Origin: Dictyostelium firmibasis | Taxonomy: Eukaryota > Evosea > Eumycetozoa > Dictyosteliales > Dictyosteliaceae | Assembly: GCA_036169595.1 (NCBI GenBank) | Contig: CM069768.1 | Coordinates: forward strand, 3,900,001 to 3,964,000 | Reading direction: 5' to 3' | Length of the DNA stretch: 64,000 nucleotides | In this document: one piece after another, positions 37,319 to 59,944 of the stretch | Position numbering within the stretch: the stretch's first letter is position 1 | Layout: the number at the start of each line of letters is the position of its first letter | Translations under genes and position numbers: made by a program | The notes under the pieces: generated by a model | The model's database searches: none | What the model was told of the DNA's origin: nothing | Seen by the model: only the letters and a program-made list of their open reading frames with translations

Positions 37319-39925
37319 ATGAGTAATTATTAAACAATCTAAATTATAAATATATATCACATGAGATTGATAATTAATAAACATTAAAAAAAAATATATA
37401 TATATATGTATAATATATTATCAATAGGTGAGGGAAAGAAAAAAAGAGCTATGGAAGGTGACCATAGAAGAAGAGAAGATATCATTGAAGATGACGATGA
37501 TGATGATATCCCAGAAAATGGAATTAAAGTATTCCCCGATGGTTCAACTTTTGAAAGGGCTTCAAAAGAAGAATTATCAAAAAGAAAGTATGTAACCACA
37601 ACAAAACCTATAATTTTTAATTATTAGTTAGTGATCATAACAATGATAATGACGATATGGTGAAAATTTTAATTATAGTATTTTTTTATTTCTAACTCTC
37701 AAATAATTAAATGCAATAGAATTTTTAAAATGAAACCAAGATCAACACCAACACCAACATCAATACCAATACCAACACCCACACCAACAGTACCAACAAC
37801 AGCATCAACATCGACATCAGTCACATCACCACCAGTTAAAGAAAATCCATTTTCAGCATTTTCATTCAACTTAAAACCAGCAGCAACATCAACCGCACAA
37901 CCAGCCACAACAAACCCATTTGCAGCATTTTCATTCAACCCAAAACCTGCATCAACCACCACAAATACTATTAATGCAGAAAATAACAATACAACTACAG
38001 AAAAAAAAACTGAAGAAACAAAATGGAAATGTGCATGTTGTGAGGCTGAACATGATGAAAAAGAATCAACTTGTACAGTTTGTATGGTACCAAGAGCAAA
38101 AGAGAAACCAAAAGAAACAAAATGGAAATGTGCATGTTGCGAAGCTGAACATGATGAAAAAGTAAACACTTGTACAGTTTGTATGGTACCAAGAGCAAAG
38201 AAAGATGATACTAAAAGAAATACTGACTCAGCACCACCAAAAGTTGATTCTGTATCATTATTCTCTGCAAAACCATCTGCATCATTATTTTCTGCACCAT
38301 CTACATCATTATTCTCTGCAACCAATAGCTCAAATTTATTCTCTGCACCACCACCATCATTATTTTCAACAAGCACACCCACAACAAATGCTTCAGATTT
38401 ATTGTTTAAACCACCTTCATTATTCTCATCATCAACACCAACCAATGCAACAAATTTATTTGGTACTACCAATACTACTTCCATAATCACTGAAGTAAAG
38501 AAAACCGAGAGTAAAGATGAAACAAAATGGAAATGTGCATGTTGTGAAGCTGAACATGATGAAAAAGAATCAACTTGTACAGTTTGTATGGTACCAAGAG
38601 CAAAAGAGAAACCAAAAGAAACAAAATGGAAATGTGCATGTTGCGAAGCTGAACATGATGAAAAAGAATCAACTTGTACAGTTTGTATGGTACCAAGAGC
38701 AAAAGAGAAACCAAAAGAAACAAAATGGAAATGTGCATGTTGCGAAGCTGAACATGATGAAAAAGTAAACACTTGTACAGTTTGTATGGTACCAAGAGCA
38801 AAGAAAGATGATACTAAAAGAAATACTGACTCAGCACCACCAAAAGTTGATTCTGTGTCATTATTCTCTGCAAAACCATCTGCATCATTATTTTCTACAC
38901 CATCCACATCATTATTCTCTGCAACCAATGGCTCAAATTTATTCTCTGCACCACCACCATCATTATTTTCAACAAACACAACAAATGCTTCAGATTTATT
39001 GTTTAAACCACCACCTTCATTATTCTCATCATCAACACCGACCAATGCAACAAATTTATTTGGTACTACCAATACTACCTCCATAGCCACCAAACCAACC
39101 GAAGTAAAGAAAACCGAGAGTAAAGATGAAACAAAATGGAAATGTGCATGTTGTGAAGCTGAACATGATGAAAAAGAATCAACTTGTACAGTTTGTATGG
39201 TACCAAGAGCAAAGAAGAAACTAGAAGAAATTAAATGGAAATGTGCATGTTGTGAAGCCGAACATGATGAAAAGGTAAACACTTGTACAGTTTGTATGGT
39301 ACCAAGAGCAAAGAAAGATGATACTAAAAAAAATACAATAACAGCACCACCAAAAGTTGATTCTGCATCATTATTCTCTACACCATCAGCATCACTATTC
39401 TCTGCAACCACTACAATTAATAATAACAATTCAAATTTATTCTCAAAACCACCACCATCATTATTTTCAACAAACTCAACCCCAACAAATTTATTTTCGG
39501 TCAAACCAGCAGAAGAAGAGAAAAAAAAAACTAATGAAAATCTATCAACAACAGTAGCAACAACAAAAAAAAATAATGATAAATGGATATGTGCATGTTG
39601 TGAACTTGAAAATGATTCTAAACTTAAAAGTTGTGATAATTGTATGGTACCTAGATTAAAGAAAAAAGAATCACCAAAAACTGATTCAACTGCATCATCA
39701 TCCTCATTATTTTCAGCACCAACAAATGGCTCAAATTTATTCTCTCAACCACCATCATTATTTTCCTCATCAAATTCAACAAACTTATTTGGTACTACTA
39801 CTGCCACCACTATAAAACCAAAAGAAGAGAAAAAGAACTTATGGAGATGTCCATGTTGTGAAACTGATAATAATGAAAAAGATAATAATTGTTCAGTTTG
39901 TGATGTACAAAAACCAAAAAAATAA
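37319..39925 (+). CDS. Nucleoporin-like protein with nine RanBP2-type zinc fingers
   Basis: Exons 37319-37322 (ATGA), 37428-37587 and 37720-39925 give 789 residues starting MSEGKKKRAMEGDHRRRED. An alternative start at 37406 is open but has a poorer context. After an acidic, Lys-rich N-terminus come nine zinc fingers of the pattern WxCxxC-x10-CxxC, seven of them nearly identical (TKWKCACCEAEHDEK and onward to CTVCMVPRAK). They are separated by spacers rich in LFS, NLFG, PSLFS and FSAF phrases. RanBP2-type fingers with FG/FS-rich spacers are typical of Nup153 and RanBP2, where the fingers bind Ran, so a nuclear pore role is inferred. The repeat arrays are recent tandem duplications of about 600 bp units. 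Confidence 0.82.
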
Positions 39926-40023: not shown

Positions 40024-42153
40024 TTATCTCGATAATAGTGATTCTAATAATTGATTAATACGTGGAACCATTTGTCTGTTATCTTCAATTAAACCAGCAC
40101 TAATGAAAGCATTATCAATAACTTGATCGATTACTAATTTAGCCACGGTTGGATTTGTTTCAATTTGTTGAATCAATTTCAAAATGATTGGATGACTCAT
40201 ATTGAACTCAACGATTTGTTTTGGAAGGTCTTGATGTTTACCAGGTTCCATCATTTTCAACATACGACGGAAGGAAGCAGATTCATGATCGATGATAATT
40301 GCTGGTGAAGAGATTGAACGATTTGTGGTTTTTGATTGTGATACTTTATCGGAGGCTGTTGTATCAACCCATGACAAGAATTTATTAATTTCATCTTCGG
40401 AGAGTGTTTCACTTCTCTTTTCTTGATTTAAATTTAAAAATTCTTCAGCTTCTTTTGATTCGACTGAAACTATTCTCTTTTCACCAAAATAACCAATATT
40501 TGAAAGGACAAATTCATCTACAGAGTTAAATAAGAAGATGACTTCAATATTTTTTAATTGGAATGGTTCATAGTATGGTGATGATTCAGCAACGGAACGA
40601 TTTGGTGCTGATAAGAAATAGATTTCATTTTGATTTGGTTTCATACGAGCTACATATTCATCCAATGATACTACACCAGTTGATGATGAATCTTTGTATG
40701 AAGATTCGAATCTTAAGAGTTTAGCGATTTCATCCTTCCAATTGAAATCGGTGATAACACCCTCCTTAAAGAAACCACCAAATTCTTCCATAAATTTATT
40801 GAATTTAATTGGATCTTTTGTAGACTCTTCCTTTAAATGTCTTAAGATTCTTTTGACTAAAACAGAGGAGAGTCTTTGAATTAAACCATTATCTTGTAAA
40901 TGTTCACGAGAAACATTTAATGGGATATCTTCACTATCTACTACACCACGTACAAAACGCATCCATTCTGGTAAGATACCCTTGGCTTTTTGTTGAATTA
41001 AAACTTTTCTGCTGAATAACGAAACGCCTGGTTCCATTTTACCCATACCATATTTCTCCATATGTTGTGATGGAATGTAAAAGAGTGAACGAATTGATAA
41101 TGGTGTATCGGCTGAGAAACTAATCTTGTAAGATGGAGTATCATATGATTTACTGAGGAATTGATAGAATTCTTTATGTTCATCATCTGTGATTGAATTC
41201 TTATTCAATGTCCACAATGGTCTAATTGTATTAACTGTAGAACCATTCAATAAAATTGGGAAACCAACGAAATTACTATACTTTTTAATGATATTTTCAA
41301 CGACTGTCATTTTGCTATATTCAAAAGAACTTGGTTTCAAATGAATGATAATCTTTGTACCACGTGATACACCCTCAGCTTCAGTGATTGAATAATTACC
41401 AGTACCATGACTCTCCCATAAATAACCTTTTGAACCAGGTAAAGCAGATTTTGTATAGATTTTAACGGTATGACCAACCATGAAACAACTGTAAAAACCA
41501 ACACCAAATTGACCGATAATTGATGCTTTGTCTGGATTTTCACCAAGGTTCTTAATGAAATCACCACTACCACTATAACCAATCTTACCGAGATTCTTTA
41601 TCATTTCGTCCCTTGTCATACCAATACCAGAGTCTTGAATAATTAAGGTCTTTTTTTCATCATCAGTTGAAATTTTAATTTCAAATGGAATCGATGAATC
41701 TTCAATAGATGATGCATTTGTTAATTGTGTGTGTCTAACTTTTTCAATTGCATCCGATGCATTTGAAATTAACTCTCTAATGAAAACTTCTTTTTCTGTA
41801 TATAAACTTTGTGCTACAATTTGTAAGATCTTTTGTGTTTCAGTTTGGAATGATAAATTCTCTGATAAACCAATGACTTTTTCAGATTCTTCTATCTTTT
41901 CCTGAACTTTAATTGCTTCATCTGGTGCAACTTCATCATCTTCTTCCTCTACCTTTGGTGGATTACTTGTAAAATATCTTTTATTTAAATCATTAAAACT
42001 AACAATGCTATTAACACTATTGTTATTGACTTGTTTAATTCCAATTACATTGGTGGTTGCTTTTAAAAAGCTTGAATTCAATAAACTACCTGTGGATCTA
42101 AGTAAATTATTTTTACCACTATTTAATATAACTTTACTGAGTGTTCTTTGCAT
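40024..42153 (-). CDS. trap1: Mitochondrial Hsp90, TRAP1
   Basis: This single-exon gene encodes 709 residues. The basic, Ser/Asn/Leu-rich N-terminus (MQRTLSKVILNSGKNNLL) is a likely mitochondrial presequence. ATP-binding GHKL motifs are intact: FIRELISNASDAIEKVRH, DSGIGMTRDEM and GQFGVGFYSCFMVG. The middle-domain catalytic region RGVVDSEDIPLNVSREHLQ is also present. The protein ends in LLESLLSR with no MEEVD, as expected of TRAP1 rather than cytosolic Hsp90. TRAP1 folds mitochondrial proteins and modulates respiration; in Dictyostelium it has been linked to growth and prestalk differentiation. Confidence 0.96.
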   Translation of the reverse strand: MQRTLSKVILNSGKNNLLRSTGSLLNSSFLKATTNVIGIKQVNNNSVNSIVSFNDLNKRYFTSNPPKVEEEDDEVAPDEAIKVQEKIEESEKVIGLSENLSFQTETQKILQIVAQSLYTEKEVFIRELISNASDAIEKVRHTQLTNASSIEDSSIPFEIKISTDDEKKTLIIQDSGIGMTRDEMIKNLGKIGYSGSGDFIKNLGENPDKASIIGQFGVGFYSCFMVGHTVKIYTKSALPGSKGYLWESHGTGNYSITEAEGVSRGTKIIIHLKPSSFEYSKMTVVENIIKKYSNFVGFPILLNGSTVNTIRPLWTLNKNSITDDEHKEFYQFLSKSYDTPSYKISFSADTPLSIRSLFYIPSQHMEKYGMGKMEPGVSLFSRKVLIQQKAKGILPEWMRFVRGVVDSEDIPLNVSREHLQDNGLIQRLSSVLVKRILRHLKEESTKDPIKFNKFMEEFGGFFKEGVITDFNWKDEIAKLLRFESSYKDSSSTGVVSLDEYVARMKPNQNEIYFLSAPNRSVAESSPYYEPFQLKNIEVIFLFNSVDEFVLSNIGYFGEKRIVSVESKEAEEFLNLNQEKRSETLSEDEINKFLSWVDTTASDKVSQSKTTNRSISSPAIIIDHESASFRRMLKMMEPGKHQDLPKQIVEFNMSHPIILKLIQQIETNPTVAKLVIDQVIDNAFISAGLIEDNRQMVPRINQLLESLLSR

Positions 42154-42831
42154 TTCTTTAAAAGTTTTAATTTAAAATAAAAATGAAAATAAATTGAAAT
42201 AAAAAGAAAAAAGAAAAAAAAAAAAAAAAGAAAAGAAAAAAAAAACTATATTTTTCGTTAGTTTGAAAAAAAAAAAAAAAAAAAAAAAAAATAAAAAAAA
42301 AAAAAAAAAAAATAATTTCGCAGTTAGTTTCATAAAAAAAAAAAAATTTAAATGAAATTTAGTTTACTACCCAACGAAGTTTTAATAAAATTTAAATAAT
42401 TGAATTACTACTATTTAATTTTTTTTTTTTAAAAAAATTTCCAAAAATGGCTAAAAAAAACTCAAGTTTTCATTTTTTTAATTTGGTTAACCCAGTGGCA
42501 AAGCTTGAAAAAAAAAAAGAAAAAAGAAAATGGGTTTTTTAAAATTGTTTAGAGTGCATTTAAAAAGATAATTGATTTTTTTTTTGAATTTATGAGTTTT
42601 GAGAATTAAATCAATAATAAAATTTAATAAAAACAAAATAAAATATACAAATCAAAAAAAAAAAAAAAAAAAAGTTATTTTTTGGATTTATATTAAAAAA
42701 AGGGTATTTTTTATTATAAGTTAATTTTTAGCTTCCAATAGGTGGGAAACAAAATGCCAATAAAGTCATAAATGACAGTATCAAACACTCCTATTAACCC
42801 AGTATTGGTGTATTAGAAACCAACAGTATCC
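42154..42831. other. Spacer between trap1 and rpl10a
   Basis: A-rich upstream region of trap1 and the 3' flank of the ribosomal protein gene. Nothing else is recognised. Confidence 0.6.
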
Positions 42832-43708
42832 TTAATAGACACGGTGAGATGGACCCATAGAGGTTTTGACGTATAAGGTCTTAATATTTTGCCATCCTTT
42901 CTTTAAGAGGGAGACTAAGAAATTAATTGATTGAATGATGTTGGTGGCAACTTCTCTTTCAGTTAATTCGATGTGACCGACAGCGACGGCTAAACATAAA
43001 ACTTTCTTAAGTTGGAATTTGACGGTTGATTTGACATCATTGATCTTAGTGGCCATATCTTCAGAGTGAGTAAGGAGGGTTGGGAATTTACCGACCTTGT
43101 TGAGACCTGGACCTAAGAGTTTTGGAACTTGACGTAAGATAGATTCAGAGGCTAAGAAAGCATCGTATTTCTTTGAGAGCTTCTTGATACCTTTCTTGTT
43201 CTTTGGACCGATTTTCTTTAAGGCTTCAATATCCATGAATTCAGCACCGATTTTAGTGGCTTCATCACAATGTTGTTGATCAGCAAAGACACAAACGCTT
43301 AATTTTGGTTTGGTGACAGTACCGATTTTGATTTGACCAGAGAAACGCTTATCTTTTTTGGTATCGTAATTCTTTAAGTTGATTTGGAGTTCAACAGTTT
43401 CTAAGAAACCTCTTTTGGATTCTTGTGCTTCTTTGAAGAGTTGGGAGACGATTGCTCTAACTTGGTCGCTTGAGATTTTGCTATTATTTTCAAAAAAATA
43501 ATAAAATAAAATTATTAATTATTTATTTTATTTTATTTTTATTTTTATTTATTAAATTTTATTTCTATATTTTTTTTTTATTATTATTCTTTTTATTTTC
43601 ATTGTAATTTTATTTTCATTTTTATTTTCATTTTTATTTTCATTTCAATTATTTTTATTTTGTTTGATTTTTGTTTAGAATAATCAAATATATAAATATT
43701 TACCTCAT
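42832..43708 (-). CDS. rpl10a: Ribosomal protein uL1 (L10a)
   Basis: Exons 43708-43704 (ATGAG) and 43480-42832 join to give 217 residues, the usual length for eukaryotic L10a. The reading begins [20 protein letters not shown] and contains the uL1 signature region around [20 protein letters not shown] and the conserved C-terminal [16 protein letters not shown]. The protein forms the L1 stalk of the 60S subunit that guides deacylated tRNA out of the E site. The intron directly after the second codon is typical of ribosomal protein genes. The putative snoRNA host transcript runs divergently from its upstream side. Confidence 0.96.
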
Positions 43709-43936
43709 TTTGAAATACCCTGTGTGTTTAAAAAACAATTGAAAAAGAAAAAAAAAAAAAAAATTTTGAATCACGAAAAAAAAAAAATTGAAAAAAAAAA
43801 AAAAAAAAAAAAAAAAATTAAAATAAATTTCCCAAAAAAAAATCTAAATTTTTTTTTTCCATATAAAATAATAATTGCCCGGTGTATTTCCTCAATCAAA
43901 TAAAAATAAAAAAATTAATATTTATTTTACATATGT

Positions 43937-44123: not shown

Positions 44124-44372
44124 TGTATTTTGGTATTGTGAATGGAAATAATAAAAAAAATTATATAAAATATGAATAAGAAAAATATGTTAATATTTAA
44201 TATTTGGACGAGACCGGGCAATAATTTTGAAAAATCACTCGTTTTTTTTTTTTTCATTTTTTTTTTTTTTTATTTTTTTTTTTTTCTTTTTTGTTAAAGA
44301 AATTTTTTTTTTTTTTTTTTATTTTCATTGTGCATTTTGGTTGCTTTTTTTTGTAAATATACACTATCCTTG
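43709..44372. other. Divergent upstream region of rpl10a and the snoRNA host transcript
   Basis: This is poly-A and poly-T rich. It probably holds the rpl10a promoter and the start of the plus-strand non-coding transcript that carries the three snoRNA-like copies. A possible first exon ends at 44372 with TTG before GTATGT. No coding frame is seen. Confidence 0.45.
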
Positions 44373-44436
44373 GTATGTCTTTAAAATAATTTTTTTATTT
44401 TTTTTTTATTACATCATCAAAAGAAAAGAGACACAA

Positions 44437-44529
44437 AAATAATTTAATGATGCATTCCTCAGCTCACACCGACCACGATGACGATGAAAAACTTTGTTCC
44501 TTATTTTTATTATCTGACAAAAATTATTT
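44437..44529 (+). ncRNA. Box C/D snoRNA-like gene, copy 1
   Basis: A C-like box ATGATGC (44447-44453) and a D box CTGA (44514-44517) lie 67 nt apart. They are enclosed by a 9-bp terminal stem, AAATAATTT (44437-44445) with AAATTATTT (44521-44529). An internal ACGATGA could be C' and an upstream CCGA or CTCA D'. The core differs from the other two copies at only three positions, while the flanks are unrelated. A short open frame starts at the C box, but perfect conservation without synonymous change argues for RNA. The target RNA is unknown. Confidence 0.72.
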
Positions 44530-44723
44530 CTCTCAACTTTTTGAAAAAAAAAAATATAAACAAAATAATTTTTATAATTCAATAATATTAATTTTTTTTT
44601 TTTTTTTTTTCCAGAGGTCCTTTTATTTTACAGTTTTCTTTTTTTCTTTTCTCTCTCTCTTCATTACCTAGTAAACTGATTAAATAGTTAAATGTATGTA
44701 GTATATTTATAGTTAACACATAG

Positions 44724-44851
44724 AATAGATTCAATGCCAATCATAAATTTTTAATGATGTATTCCTCAGCTCACACCGACCACGATGACGATGAAAAACT
44801 TTGTTCCTTATTTTTATTTGCTGACAAAAATTTATATGGCATTAATCTATT
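44724..44851 (+). ncRNA. Box C/D snoRNA-like gene, copy 2
   Basis: The C-like box is ATGATGT (44754-44760) and the D box CTGA (44821-44824), with the same 67-nt spacing. Its flanks pair in three blocks: 10 bp (44743-44752 with 44826-44835), 6 bp (44733-44738 with 44838-44843) and 7 bp (44724-44730 with 44845-44851). The core is identical to copy 3 over about 71 nt. The long flanking stem is unlike copies 1 and 3 in sequence but equivalent in position. Confidence 0.74.
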
Positions 44852-45057
44852 TAAATTTAATAGTTTTTTTTAACAACCAATACTAATAACTCTCTTTTTG
44901 AAACAGTCTTTTATTAGTTTTTTCTTATCCTTTTTTTTTCTTTTCTTCTTTTTTTTCTCTTCTATTTCCTTTTTTAATTTCTTTTTTCCAGTTATTATTT
45001 TTTTCTTTAATTGGTAAGTTTTTTTTATTATATCTATTGTATATATATTTATAATTG

Positions 45058-45165
45058 ATTTAAAAGGATAGTTTAATGATGTATTCCTCAGCTCACACCG
45101 ACCACGATGACGATGAAAAACTTTGTTCCTTATTTTTATTTGCTGACAAACTATCTCTTTTAAAT
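45058..45165 (+). ncRNA. Box C/D snoRNA-like gene, copy 3
   Basis: The C-like box ATGATGT (45076-45082) and D box CTGA (45143-45146) are again 67 nt apart. The terminal stem is GATAGTTT (45067-45074) with AAACTATC (45148-45155). It extends, past one unpaired base, by ATTTAAAAG (45058-45066) with CTTTTAAAT (45157-45165), 17 bp in all. The core matches copy 2 exactly. Confidence 0.74.
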
Positions 45166-45249
45166 GACATTAAAAAAAAAAAAAAAAAAAAAAAAAGAAA
45201 AATATTGGATGTCTTCTAACCCAGCTTTTTCTTTTTTTTTTATTTACAG

Positions 45250-45569
45250 ATAATTACAGGCCAACTTTGAAAAAAAAAATAAATAAATAAAATGATTATT
45301 GAGTTAATGTTACAAATAAAAAATATAATTGTTAGGTTTTTTTTTTTTTAAAAAAATATTTTATTTATTTTAGTTTTTTTTTTTTGTAATATTATTATTT
45401 TTATTGTCAATAGAAAAAAGAAAGAGATGGAGAAAAAATAAAAAAGTTTTCACAATTGGGTGTGATAAAAAATTGAGATTTGAAAGTTCGTGTATCTATT
45501 GAAAAACTATCGCCAACAAACCAATCAATTTATTATCTTCCAATTGTTTAATTATACTAAATAATAAAT
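45250..45569. other. 3' end of host transcript and convergent spacer
   Basis: A possible last host exon starts at 45250. The remainder is AT-rich and forms the 3' flank of the minus-strand Cys-rich gene. There is no other feature. Confidence 0.45.
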
Positions 45570-59873: not shown

Positions 59874-59944
59874 GGGGAGATCCGAGAATCGAACTCAGGA
59901 CGCTACCACCCAAAGGTAGCATTATACCACTTAACTAATCTCCC
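59874..59944 (-). tRNA. tRNA-Pro (anticodon UGG)
   Basis: The minus strand folds into a complete cloverleaf. The acceptor stem is GGGAGAT with ATCTCCC (7 bp). The D arm is GTTA with TAAT. The anticodon stem CTACC/GGTAG encloses the loop TTTGGGT (anticodon TGG, G37 as in eukaryotic tRNA-Pro), and the T arm is CTGAG/CTCGG with the loop TTCGATT. Internal A box (TAGTTAAGTGG) and B box (GTTCGATTC) match consensus. There is no intron. Confidence 0.97.

What the first reader, a model, noticed from the sequence alone, without database searches (positions are those of the whole stretch)
44373..45249. Three box C/D snoRNA-like genes, each in its own intron of a non-coding host transcript
A 71-nt core starting with an ATGATG[C/T] C-like box and ending in a CTGA D box occurs three times with identical 67-nt box spacing. 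Copies 2 and 3 are identical and copy 1 differs at three positions, while the surrounding sequence does not align. Each copy is followed by a splice-acceptor-like TTCCAG or TTTACAG and preceded by a GTATGT/GTAAGT-type donor, with short non-coding exons between. This is the SNHG/UHG layout of animals. It sits divergently next to rpl10a, a plausible place for a growth-controlled host. I know of no description of it, but I cannot search.
Basis: partly seen in the sequence, partly recalled or inferred. Interest (0 to 1): 0.82.

Follow-up and report, generated by a model that had tools for sequence, protein, structure and literature searches.

The report
Non-coding snoRNA host gene in Dictyostelium
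Three copies of a known ribosome-modifying guide RNA each sit in their own predicted intron of what looks like a gene that makes no protein, a layout known from animals and fungi that I did not find described for social amoebae, and several other guide RNAs in the same genome look the same.

Summary
The three copies are full-length matches to Rfam RF01561 (DdR11), a known Dictyostelium box C/D snoRNA; no others were found in the genome. D. discoideum CD11 is assigned to 26S Am3279, counterpart of yeast snR71 and human U29 (PMC8817022). So the snoRNA is not new. The host layout is well supported by sequence: each copy has a GTAAGT/GTATGT 57-71 nt upstream, a branch-like motif and AG downstream, and its own flanking stem; exons carry no ORF above 19 codons. 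It recurs: 8 of 9 Rfam-identified snoRNA copies examined have such a donor, and a genome-wide pattern scan plus reading of flanks brought the set to 17 C/D snoRNAs in nine loci, one per predicted intron. The D. discoideum paper places all its C/D snoRNA genes but CD38 in intergenic DNA. The assembly matches D. firmibasis. Splicing is unproven; no RNA data could be used.

The parts
44223..44372 (+). predicted host exon 1 (3' end at donor; transcription start unknown, placed somewhere in this stretch by assumption)
   Evidence: ends at GTATGT 44373; start positions 44223, 44260 and 44300 tried in the spliced models
44373..44614 (+). predicted intron 1 (242 nt)
   Evidence: GTATGT ... TTAAT 44588-44592 ... 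TTCCAG
44444..44519 (+). box C/D snoRNA DdR11 copy a
   Evidence: RF01561, 94.3 bits, gathering score 65
44615..44693 (+). predicted host exon 2, noncoding
44694..44906 (+). predicted intron 2 (213 nt; alternative acceptor 44991)
   Evidence: GTATGT ... TACTAAT 44881-44887 ... GAAACAG
44751..44826 (+). box C/D snoRNA DdR11 copy b
   Evidence: RF01561, 96.1 bits
44907..45013 (+). predicted host exon 3, 87% pyrimidine, noncoding
45014..45249 (+). predicted intron 3 (236 nt)
   Evidence: GTAAGT ... TTCTAAC ending 45220 ... TTTACAG
45073..45148 (+). box C/D snoRNA DdR11 copy c
   Evidence: RF01561, 96.1 bits
45250..45420 (+). predicted terminal exon 4 (3' end unknown, 45420 is an arbitrary limit)
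   Evidence: the longest ATG-ORF of the spliced models, 19 codons, lies here
44213..44222 (+). ACCGGGCAAT, candidate promoter element of the host
   Evidence: 8 sites in the genome, 3 of them outside long open frames
43874..43883 (-). the same element upstream of rpl10a, facing the other way
42832..43518 (-). rpl10a main exon frame (divergent neighbour)
   Evidence: PF00687, 170 bits

Best explanation
A dedicated snoRNA host gene of the UHG/SNHG type. RNA polymerase II (inferred) transcribes a short RNA divergently from rpl10a; its three introns are spliced, and each intron releases one DdR11 box C/D snoRNA. Within each intron the snoRNA ends are brought together by an intron-specific flanking stem, so that the C/D k-turn forms, snoRNP proteins bind and exonucleases trim to the mature ends (inferred from known biology). 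The spliced exons code for nothing. The mature RNA guides 2'-O-methylation of the 26S adenosine equivalent to yeast A2946 (D. discoideum Am3279). Three copies probably raise the dose of one guide. Shown here: snoRNA identity, splice-signal statistics, stems, lack of ORF, recurrence at other loci. Inferred: transcription, splicing, processing order, methylation in this species.
For: Rfam full-length hits. Published target of CD11; the guide upstream of the CCGA D'-like box pairs over 10 bp with a recalled yeast 25S fragment and N+5 falls on A2946. Three GTA[AT]GT in 1,071 bp, each 57-71 nt before a snoRNA, none on the other strand. 8 of 9 Rfam-identified snoRNA copies have GTANGT 46-74 nt before the C box; from the 25 GTANGT in 99,696 strand-bases about 0.02 per copy would be expected. 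Controls over 18 copies: sense downstream 0, antisense mirror 1 (DdR12), antisense upstream 1 (DdR10, whose GTACGT is its own reverse complement). CTAAY/TTAAC plus AG downstream in 14 of 17; dinucleotide shuffles mean 4.1, maximum 9, 0 of 300 reach 14; antisense mirror 3 of 17. Flanking stems: native mean -11.9 kcal/mol, permuted partners -4.4 with sd 0.66, 0 of 20,000 as low; 13 of 18 copies pair best with their own partner, DdR11 b and c among them. Longest ATG-ORF 19 codons in 18 of 18 spliced models.
Against: No RNA evidence. DdR11a has the weakest stem of the three (-7.3, rank 4 of 18) and only a TTAAT branch candidate. Diesend et al. place all their D. [quoted passage not shown] One control, DdR12, has no donor and carries CCCATAAA upstream, so not every snoRNA here is intronic. 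My attempt to train a splice model from coding introns was too noisy to use.
Confidence: 0.88

Rival explanations
1. An unspliced intergenic polycistron: the three DdR11 units are cut from one precursor by an RNase III (DrnB) or other endonuclease acting on the flanking stems, as assumed for the D. discoideum clusters.
For: Published view of D. discoideum clusters as intergenic mono- or polycistrons; strong flanking stems would serve an endonuclease as well.
Against: It does not predict a consensus donor 46-74 nt before 8 of 9 copies found without a donor criterion, nor branch plus AG after 14 of 17. In D. discoideum, loss of DrnB left the methylation pattern at large unchanged (PMC8817022).
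Confidence: 0.08
2. Three independently transcribed snoRNA genes, each with its own promoter.
For: DdR12 in this genome may be such a gene, with CCCATAAA about 90 nt upstream (that this resembles the Dictyostelium upstream element is recalled).
Against: No CCCA[TC]AA upstream of the first donor at this locus or the other eight hosts (260 nt looked at, 184 in L047), and none seen in the 200 nt before copies b and c (read by eye).
Confidence: 0.02
3. The copies are a tandem duplication of one snoRNA and the splice-like motifs are chance in AT-rich DNA.
For: Copies b and c are identical; T-rich tracts ending in AG are common here (by eye).
Against: Donor hexamers are rare (0.18 per kb per strand); branch plus AG exceeds all 300 shuffles; the flanks differ between copies yet pair within each copy.
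Confidence: 0.02

Closest known systems
DdR11 / CD11 box C/D snoRNA (RF01561)
   Same: full-length sequence match, guide and boxes conserved; assigned target 26S Am3279 in D. discoideum (PMC8817022)
   Different: three copies here; the copy number in D. discoideum was not seen
UHG/SNHG1 and Drosophila Uhg genes
   Same: exons without ORF, one snoRNA per intron (Drosophila Uhg, PMC4430873 passages); human SNHG1 hosts SNORD29 (PMC7154078 passage), the counterpart of CD11
   Different: three copies of a single snoRNA, small and AT-rich gene; promoter class not established
Neurospora crassa UHG-like cluster hosts (PMC2780460)
   Same: noncoding hosts with canonical splice sites around C/D snoRNAs; snoRNA mainly 41-60 nt from the 5' splice site, against 43-71 nt for the eight Rfam-identified copies here
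   Different: splicing and alternative splicing shown there by RT-PCR, not testable here; snoRNA sets not compared
D. discoideum snoRNA clusters of Diesend 2022
   Same: clusters of two and three, equally spaced; DdR families 1, 2 and 13 occur in pairs here
   Different: described as intergenic, CD38 being the only intronic one; which D. discoideum clusters correspond was not seen (supplement)

Membership tests
box C/D snoRNA DdR11 | covariance-model match above curated threshold | tested here: met
   94.3-96.1 bits, threshold 65, 76 of 76 positions
box C/D snoRNA DdR11 | C and D boxes, ends brought together by a stem | tested here: met
   ATGATG/CTGA; flanking stems -7.3, -17.4, -16.5 kcal/mol; copy a weak
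box C/D snoRNA DdR11 | guide pairs with rRNA at N+5 | tested here: inconclusive
box C/D snoRNA DdR11 | fibrillarin-bound stable RNA | not testable with these tools
   no RNA data
UHG/SNHG host gene | one snoRNA per intron with canonical splice signals | tested here: met
   (sequence only)
UHG/SNHG host gene | exons without protein-coding capacity | tested here: met
   19 codons at most in 18 of 18 models
UHG/SNHG host gene | spliced transcript exists | not testable with these tools
   no RNA-seq reads available
UHG/SNHG host gene | 5'TOP or ribosomal-protein-type promoter | tested here: inconclusive
   ACCGGGCAAT shared with rpl10a and rplp1 but absent from three other acidic ribosomal protein loci, L034-L036; start site unknown

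The most novel reading that the evidence does not exclude
Noncoding snoRNA host genes are older than the split of Amoebozoa from animals and fungi. In this genome the predicted noncoding hosts carry counterparts of human U29 (DdR11), U31 (DdR13), U25 (DdR1) and U27 (L045 snoRNA 2), and all four lie in human SNHG1; a DdR13-type copy and DdR1 even share a host. The Dictyostelium hosts could be remnants of one ancestral UHG.
Probability: 0.08. Interest if true: 0.85.

Novelty: new member of a known kind. Interest (0 to 1): 0.6.

Why it matters
If splicing is confirmed, many box C/D snoRNAs of a dictyostelid would be made by splicing of dedicated noncoding genes, not from intergenic units as published for D. 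discoideum. It extends the UHG layout to Amoebozoa, would explain the regular spacing of the published clusters, supplies a set of likely noncoding genes to annotate, and points to a genetically tractable amoeba in which snoRNA hosts could be mutated.

Tried and rejected
Splice models trained by EM on coding-frame gaps: few and noisy introns, not used. Conserved LSU searches in the own genome: two patterns gave 0; a 120-nt query matched only 58 bases on C12, which I take to be the mitochondrial contig from its length. So the guide was tested only against recalled yeast sequence. Exact scan of viral contigs with a 25-nt word from the guide region: 0. ACCGGGCAAT as a general ribosomal-protein element: rejected, it is missing from L034, L035 and L036, which I read as rplp2, rplp0 and a second rplp1-like gene. 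Large DNA self-search (capped list): the listed matches elsewhere fall in T- or A-rich parts of the query and none covers a snoRNA core. Of the 52 pattern hits, all examined, 33 lie in open frames of 113 codons or more; the 15 accepted ones lie in frames of 0-99 codons, so the line was drawn after seeing the values; 4 others (L048, L052, L068, L074; 86, 35, 0 and 78 codons) were not accepted, by eye. Independent genes by CCCAYAA elements: none found at the nine hosts. Papers: PMC8817022 read in section 17 (parts 1 and 2 of 3) and section 30, otherwise passages; PMC11193728 section 11 and passages; PMC2780460, PMC12309372, PMC5295588, PMC6161686, PMC4430873, PMC7154078 passages only; Aspegren 2004 not held. 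That I found no description of the layout rests on searches of an open-access library, and on no supplementary file.

Full report
What the window is. The window lies in an assembly of 31,455,843 bases in 12 contigs. One figure does not match: the paper gives the smallest main contig as 3.9 Mbp and here it is 2.98 Mb. That paper annotated snoRNAs with Rfam (23 in all), so these copies may already be annotated as snoRNAs; I could not see the record.

The snoRNAs. Rfam finds DdR11 (RF01561) three times, 76 of 76 positions, 94.3 to 96.1 bits against a threshold of 65. A genome search found these three and no others (it scores only its best candidates). In D. discoideum CD11 is assigned to 26S Am3279, equivalent to yeast Am2946 (snR71), human Am4493 (U29) and Arabidopsis U29 (PMC8817022 Table 1; I assume CD and DdR numbers agree). 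The nuclear LSU of this genome was not found.

Splice signals at the locus. In 44230-45300 there are exactly three GTA[AT]GT on the + strand and none on the - strand, at 44373, 44694 and 45014, which is 71, 57 and 59 nt before the three snoRNAs; sampled noncoding DNA has 18 in 99,696 strand-bases. Downstream of copies b and c, TACTAAT and TTCTAAC lie 21 and 31 nt before the ends of CAG 44906 and CAG 45249; copy a has only TTAAT before CAG 44614. In 18 of 18 spliced models the longest ATG-ORF is 19 codons (starts and ends of the transcript are assumed).

Other snoRNAs of the same genome. As a control I looked for other Rfam snoRNAs, expecting no donors. DdR12, DdR13 (two copies) and DdR10 were found by family search (the DdR13 copies were below the cut-off in that search and above it), and DdR2 and DdR1 turned up beside the DdR13 copies. 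The control came out the other way: DdR13a, DdR2, DdR13b and DdR1 have GTAAGT or GTATGT and DdR10 has GTACGT upstream; only DdR12 has none, and it carries CCCATAAA instead. Counting DdR11, 8 of 9 copies found without any donor criterion have GTANGT 46-74 nt before the C box. Over 18 copies the control positions of the same call gave 0 (sense downstream), 1 (antisense mirror, DdR12) and 1 (antisense upstream, the self-complementary GTACGT of DdR10).

A genome-wide set. A pattern donor - 40-70 - ATGATG - 45-75 - CTGA gave 52 hits against 16 for the reversed pattern. All 52 were examined: 33 lie in open frames of at least 113 codons, 15 are snoRNA-like with open frames of 0-99 codons, and 4 others were not accepted. 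Two further snoRNAs were seen by eye in the fetched flanks (L045 snoRNA 2, with a GTAAGA donor, and L046 snoRNA 2). This gives 17 snoRNAs in nine loci: this window (3), L040 (2), L041 (2), L042 (1), L044 (1), L045 (3), L046 (2), L047 (1), L049 (2). Rfam supports DdR2 in L047 and SNORD36 in L046 above threshold and SNORD27 in L045 below it (35.2 against 52); the L044 and L049 units and the others of L045 and L046 have no match above threshold. Members found by the donor pattern cannot count for the donor statistic, but can for the next two tests.

Two tests not based on the donor. Downstream, CTAAY or TTAAC followed by AG is present in 14 of 17; dinucleotide shuffles give a mean of 4.1 and a maximum of 9 in 300, and the antisense mirror gives 3 of 17. 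The predicted introns of those 14 are 208-259 nt. The flanks of each snoRNA pair with each other: native mean -11.9 kcal/mol over 18 copies (DdR12 included), permuted partners -4.4 with sd 0.66, 0 of 20,000 permutations as low; 13 of 18 rank first with their own partner. DdR11 b and c have different but internally matching stems, which duplication alone would not give. The five that do not rank first: L046 snoRNA 2 (-3.9, rank 9), DdR12 (-4.5, rank 4), DdR11a (-7.3, rank 4), L045 snoRNA 1 (-11.1, rank 3), DdR10 (-8.9, rank 2).

Promoter. ACCGGGCAAT occurs 8 times in the genome (reversed control 4). Five are in open frames of 552 codons or more; the other three lie before rpl10a, before this host and before rplp1 (PF00428), all facing the gene. 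It is absent from L034, L035 and L036, the other PF00428 loci that I read as ribosomal, so it is suggestive of a shared divergent promoter, not proof of ribosomal-protein co-regulation. Four of nine hosts (L041, L044, L045, L049) carry TTTTACTTTTTT 102-138 nt before the first donor; for the longer TTTTTACTTTTTT the background is 5 in 351,596 strand-bases.

Against the literature. Diesend et al. [quoted passage not shown] Equal spacing and flanking stems are what a one-per-intron host would give. Whether D. discoideum itself has these introns I could not test: I had no access to its genome. Noncoding UHG-like hosts are known in animals and in Neurospora, where the 5' splice site is mainly 41-60 nt from the snoRNA (PMC2780460). 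So the kind is known; the amoebozoan member, and probably a class of them, is what appears new.

Parallel with human SNHG1. SNHG1 carries SNORD22 and SNORD25 to 31 (PMC7154078). By Table 1 of PMC8817022 CD11, CD13 and CD1 match U29, U31 and U25 at one target each, and L045 snoRNA 2 pairs with recalled 18S at A28, the U27 site. Four such counterparts in predicted noncoding hosts is a post-hoc count on few genes, and the DdR13-type copies could include DdR9; I rate common ancestry as unlikely but worth a test.

Verdict. Known snoRNA, real and apparently undescribed host organisation, strong on sequence statistics, unproven at the RNA level.

Noticed in passing
L049 (G000:C6:2831000-2832400): Two paralogous snoRNA-like units about 300 bp apart, each with GTAAGT upstream; no Rfam match above threshold or up to E 1.
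   Followed up: partly
L047 (G000:C5:875300-876500), about 245-335: First predicted intron (donor at 185) may hold another snoRNA with a divergent C box (AATGATTA) and an ATGA D box, flanked by a TATTTTTC/GAAAAATA stem; read by eye only, not counted.
   Followed up: no
L039 (G000:C3:1218816-1218884 region): DdR12 lacks a donor and has CCCATAAA about 90 nt upstream, so it may be independently transcribed.
   Followed up: partly
L041, L044, L045, L049: TTTTACTTTTTT 102-138 nt before the first predicted donor in four of nine hosts, a possible host promoter element.
   Followed up: partly
L023 near 3045: TTGCCCGG lies beside a sequence that resembles U6 snRNA (recalled).
   Followed up: no
window 37679-39925 +: Long frame with many near-identical zinc-finger-like repeats (WKCACCEAEHDEKESTCTVCMVPRAK), resembling RanBP2-type fingers (recalled).
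   Followed up: no
window 40024-42171 -: HSP90-family protein (PF00183, 309.6 bits).
   Followed up: partly
window 59874-59944 -: tRNA-Pro (TGG).
   Followed up: no
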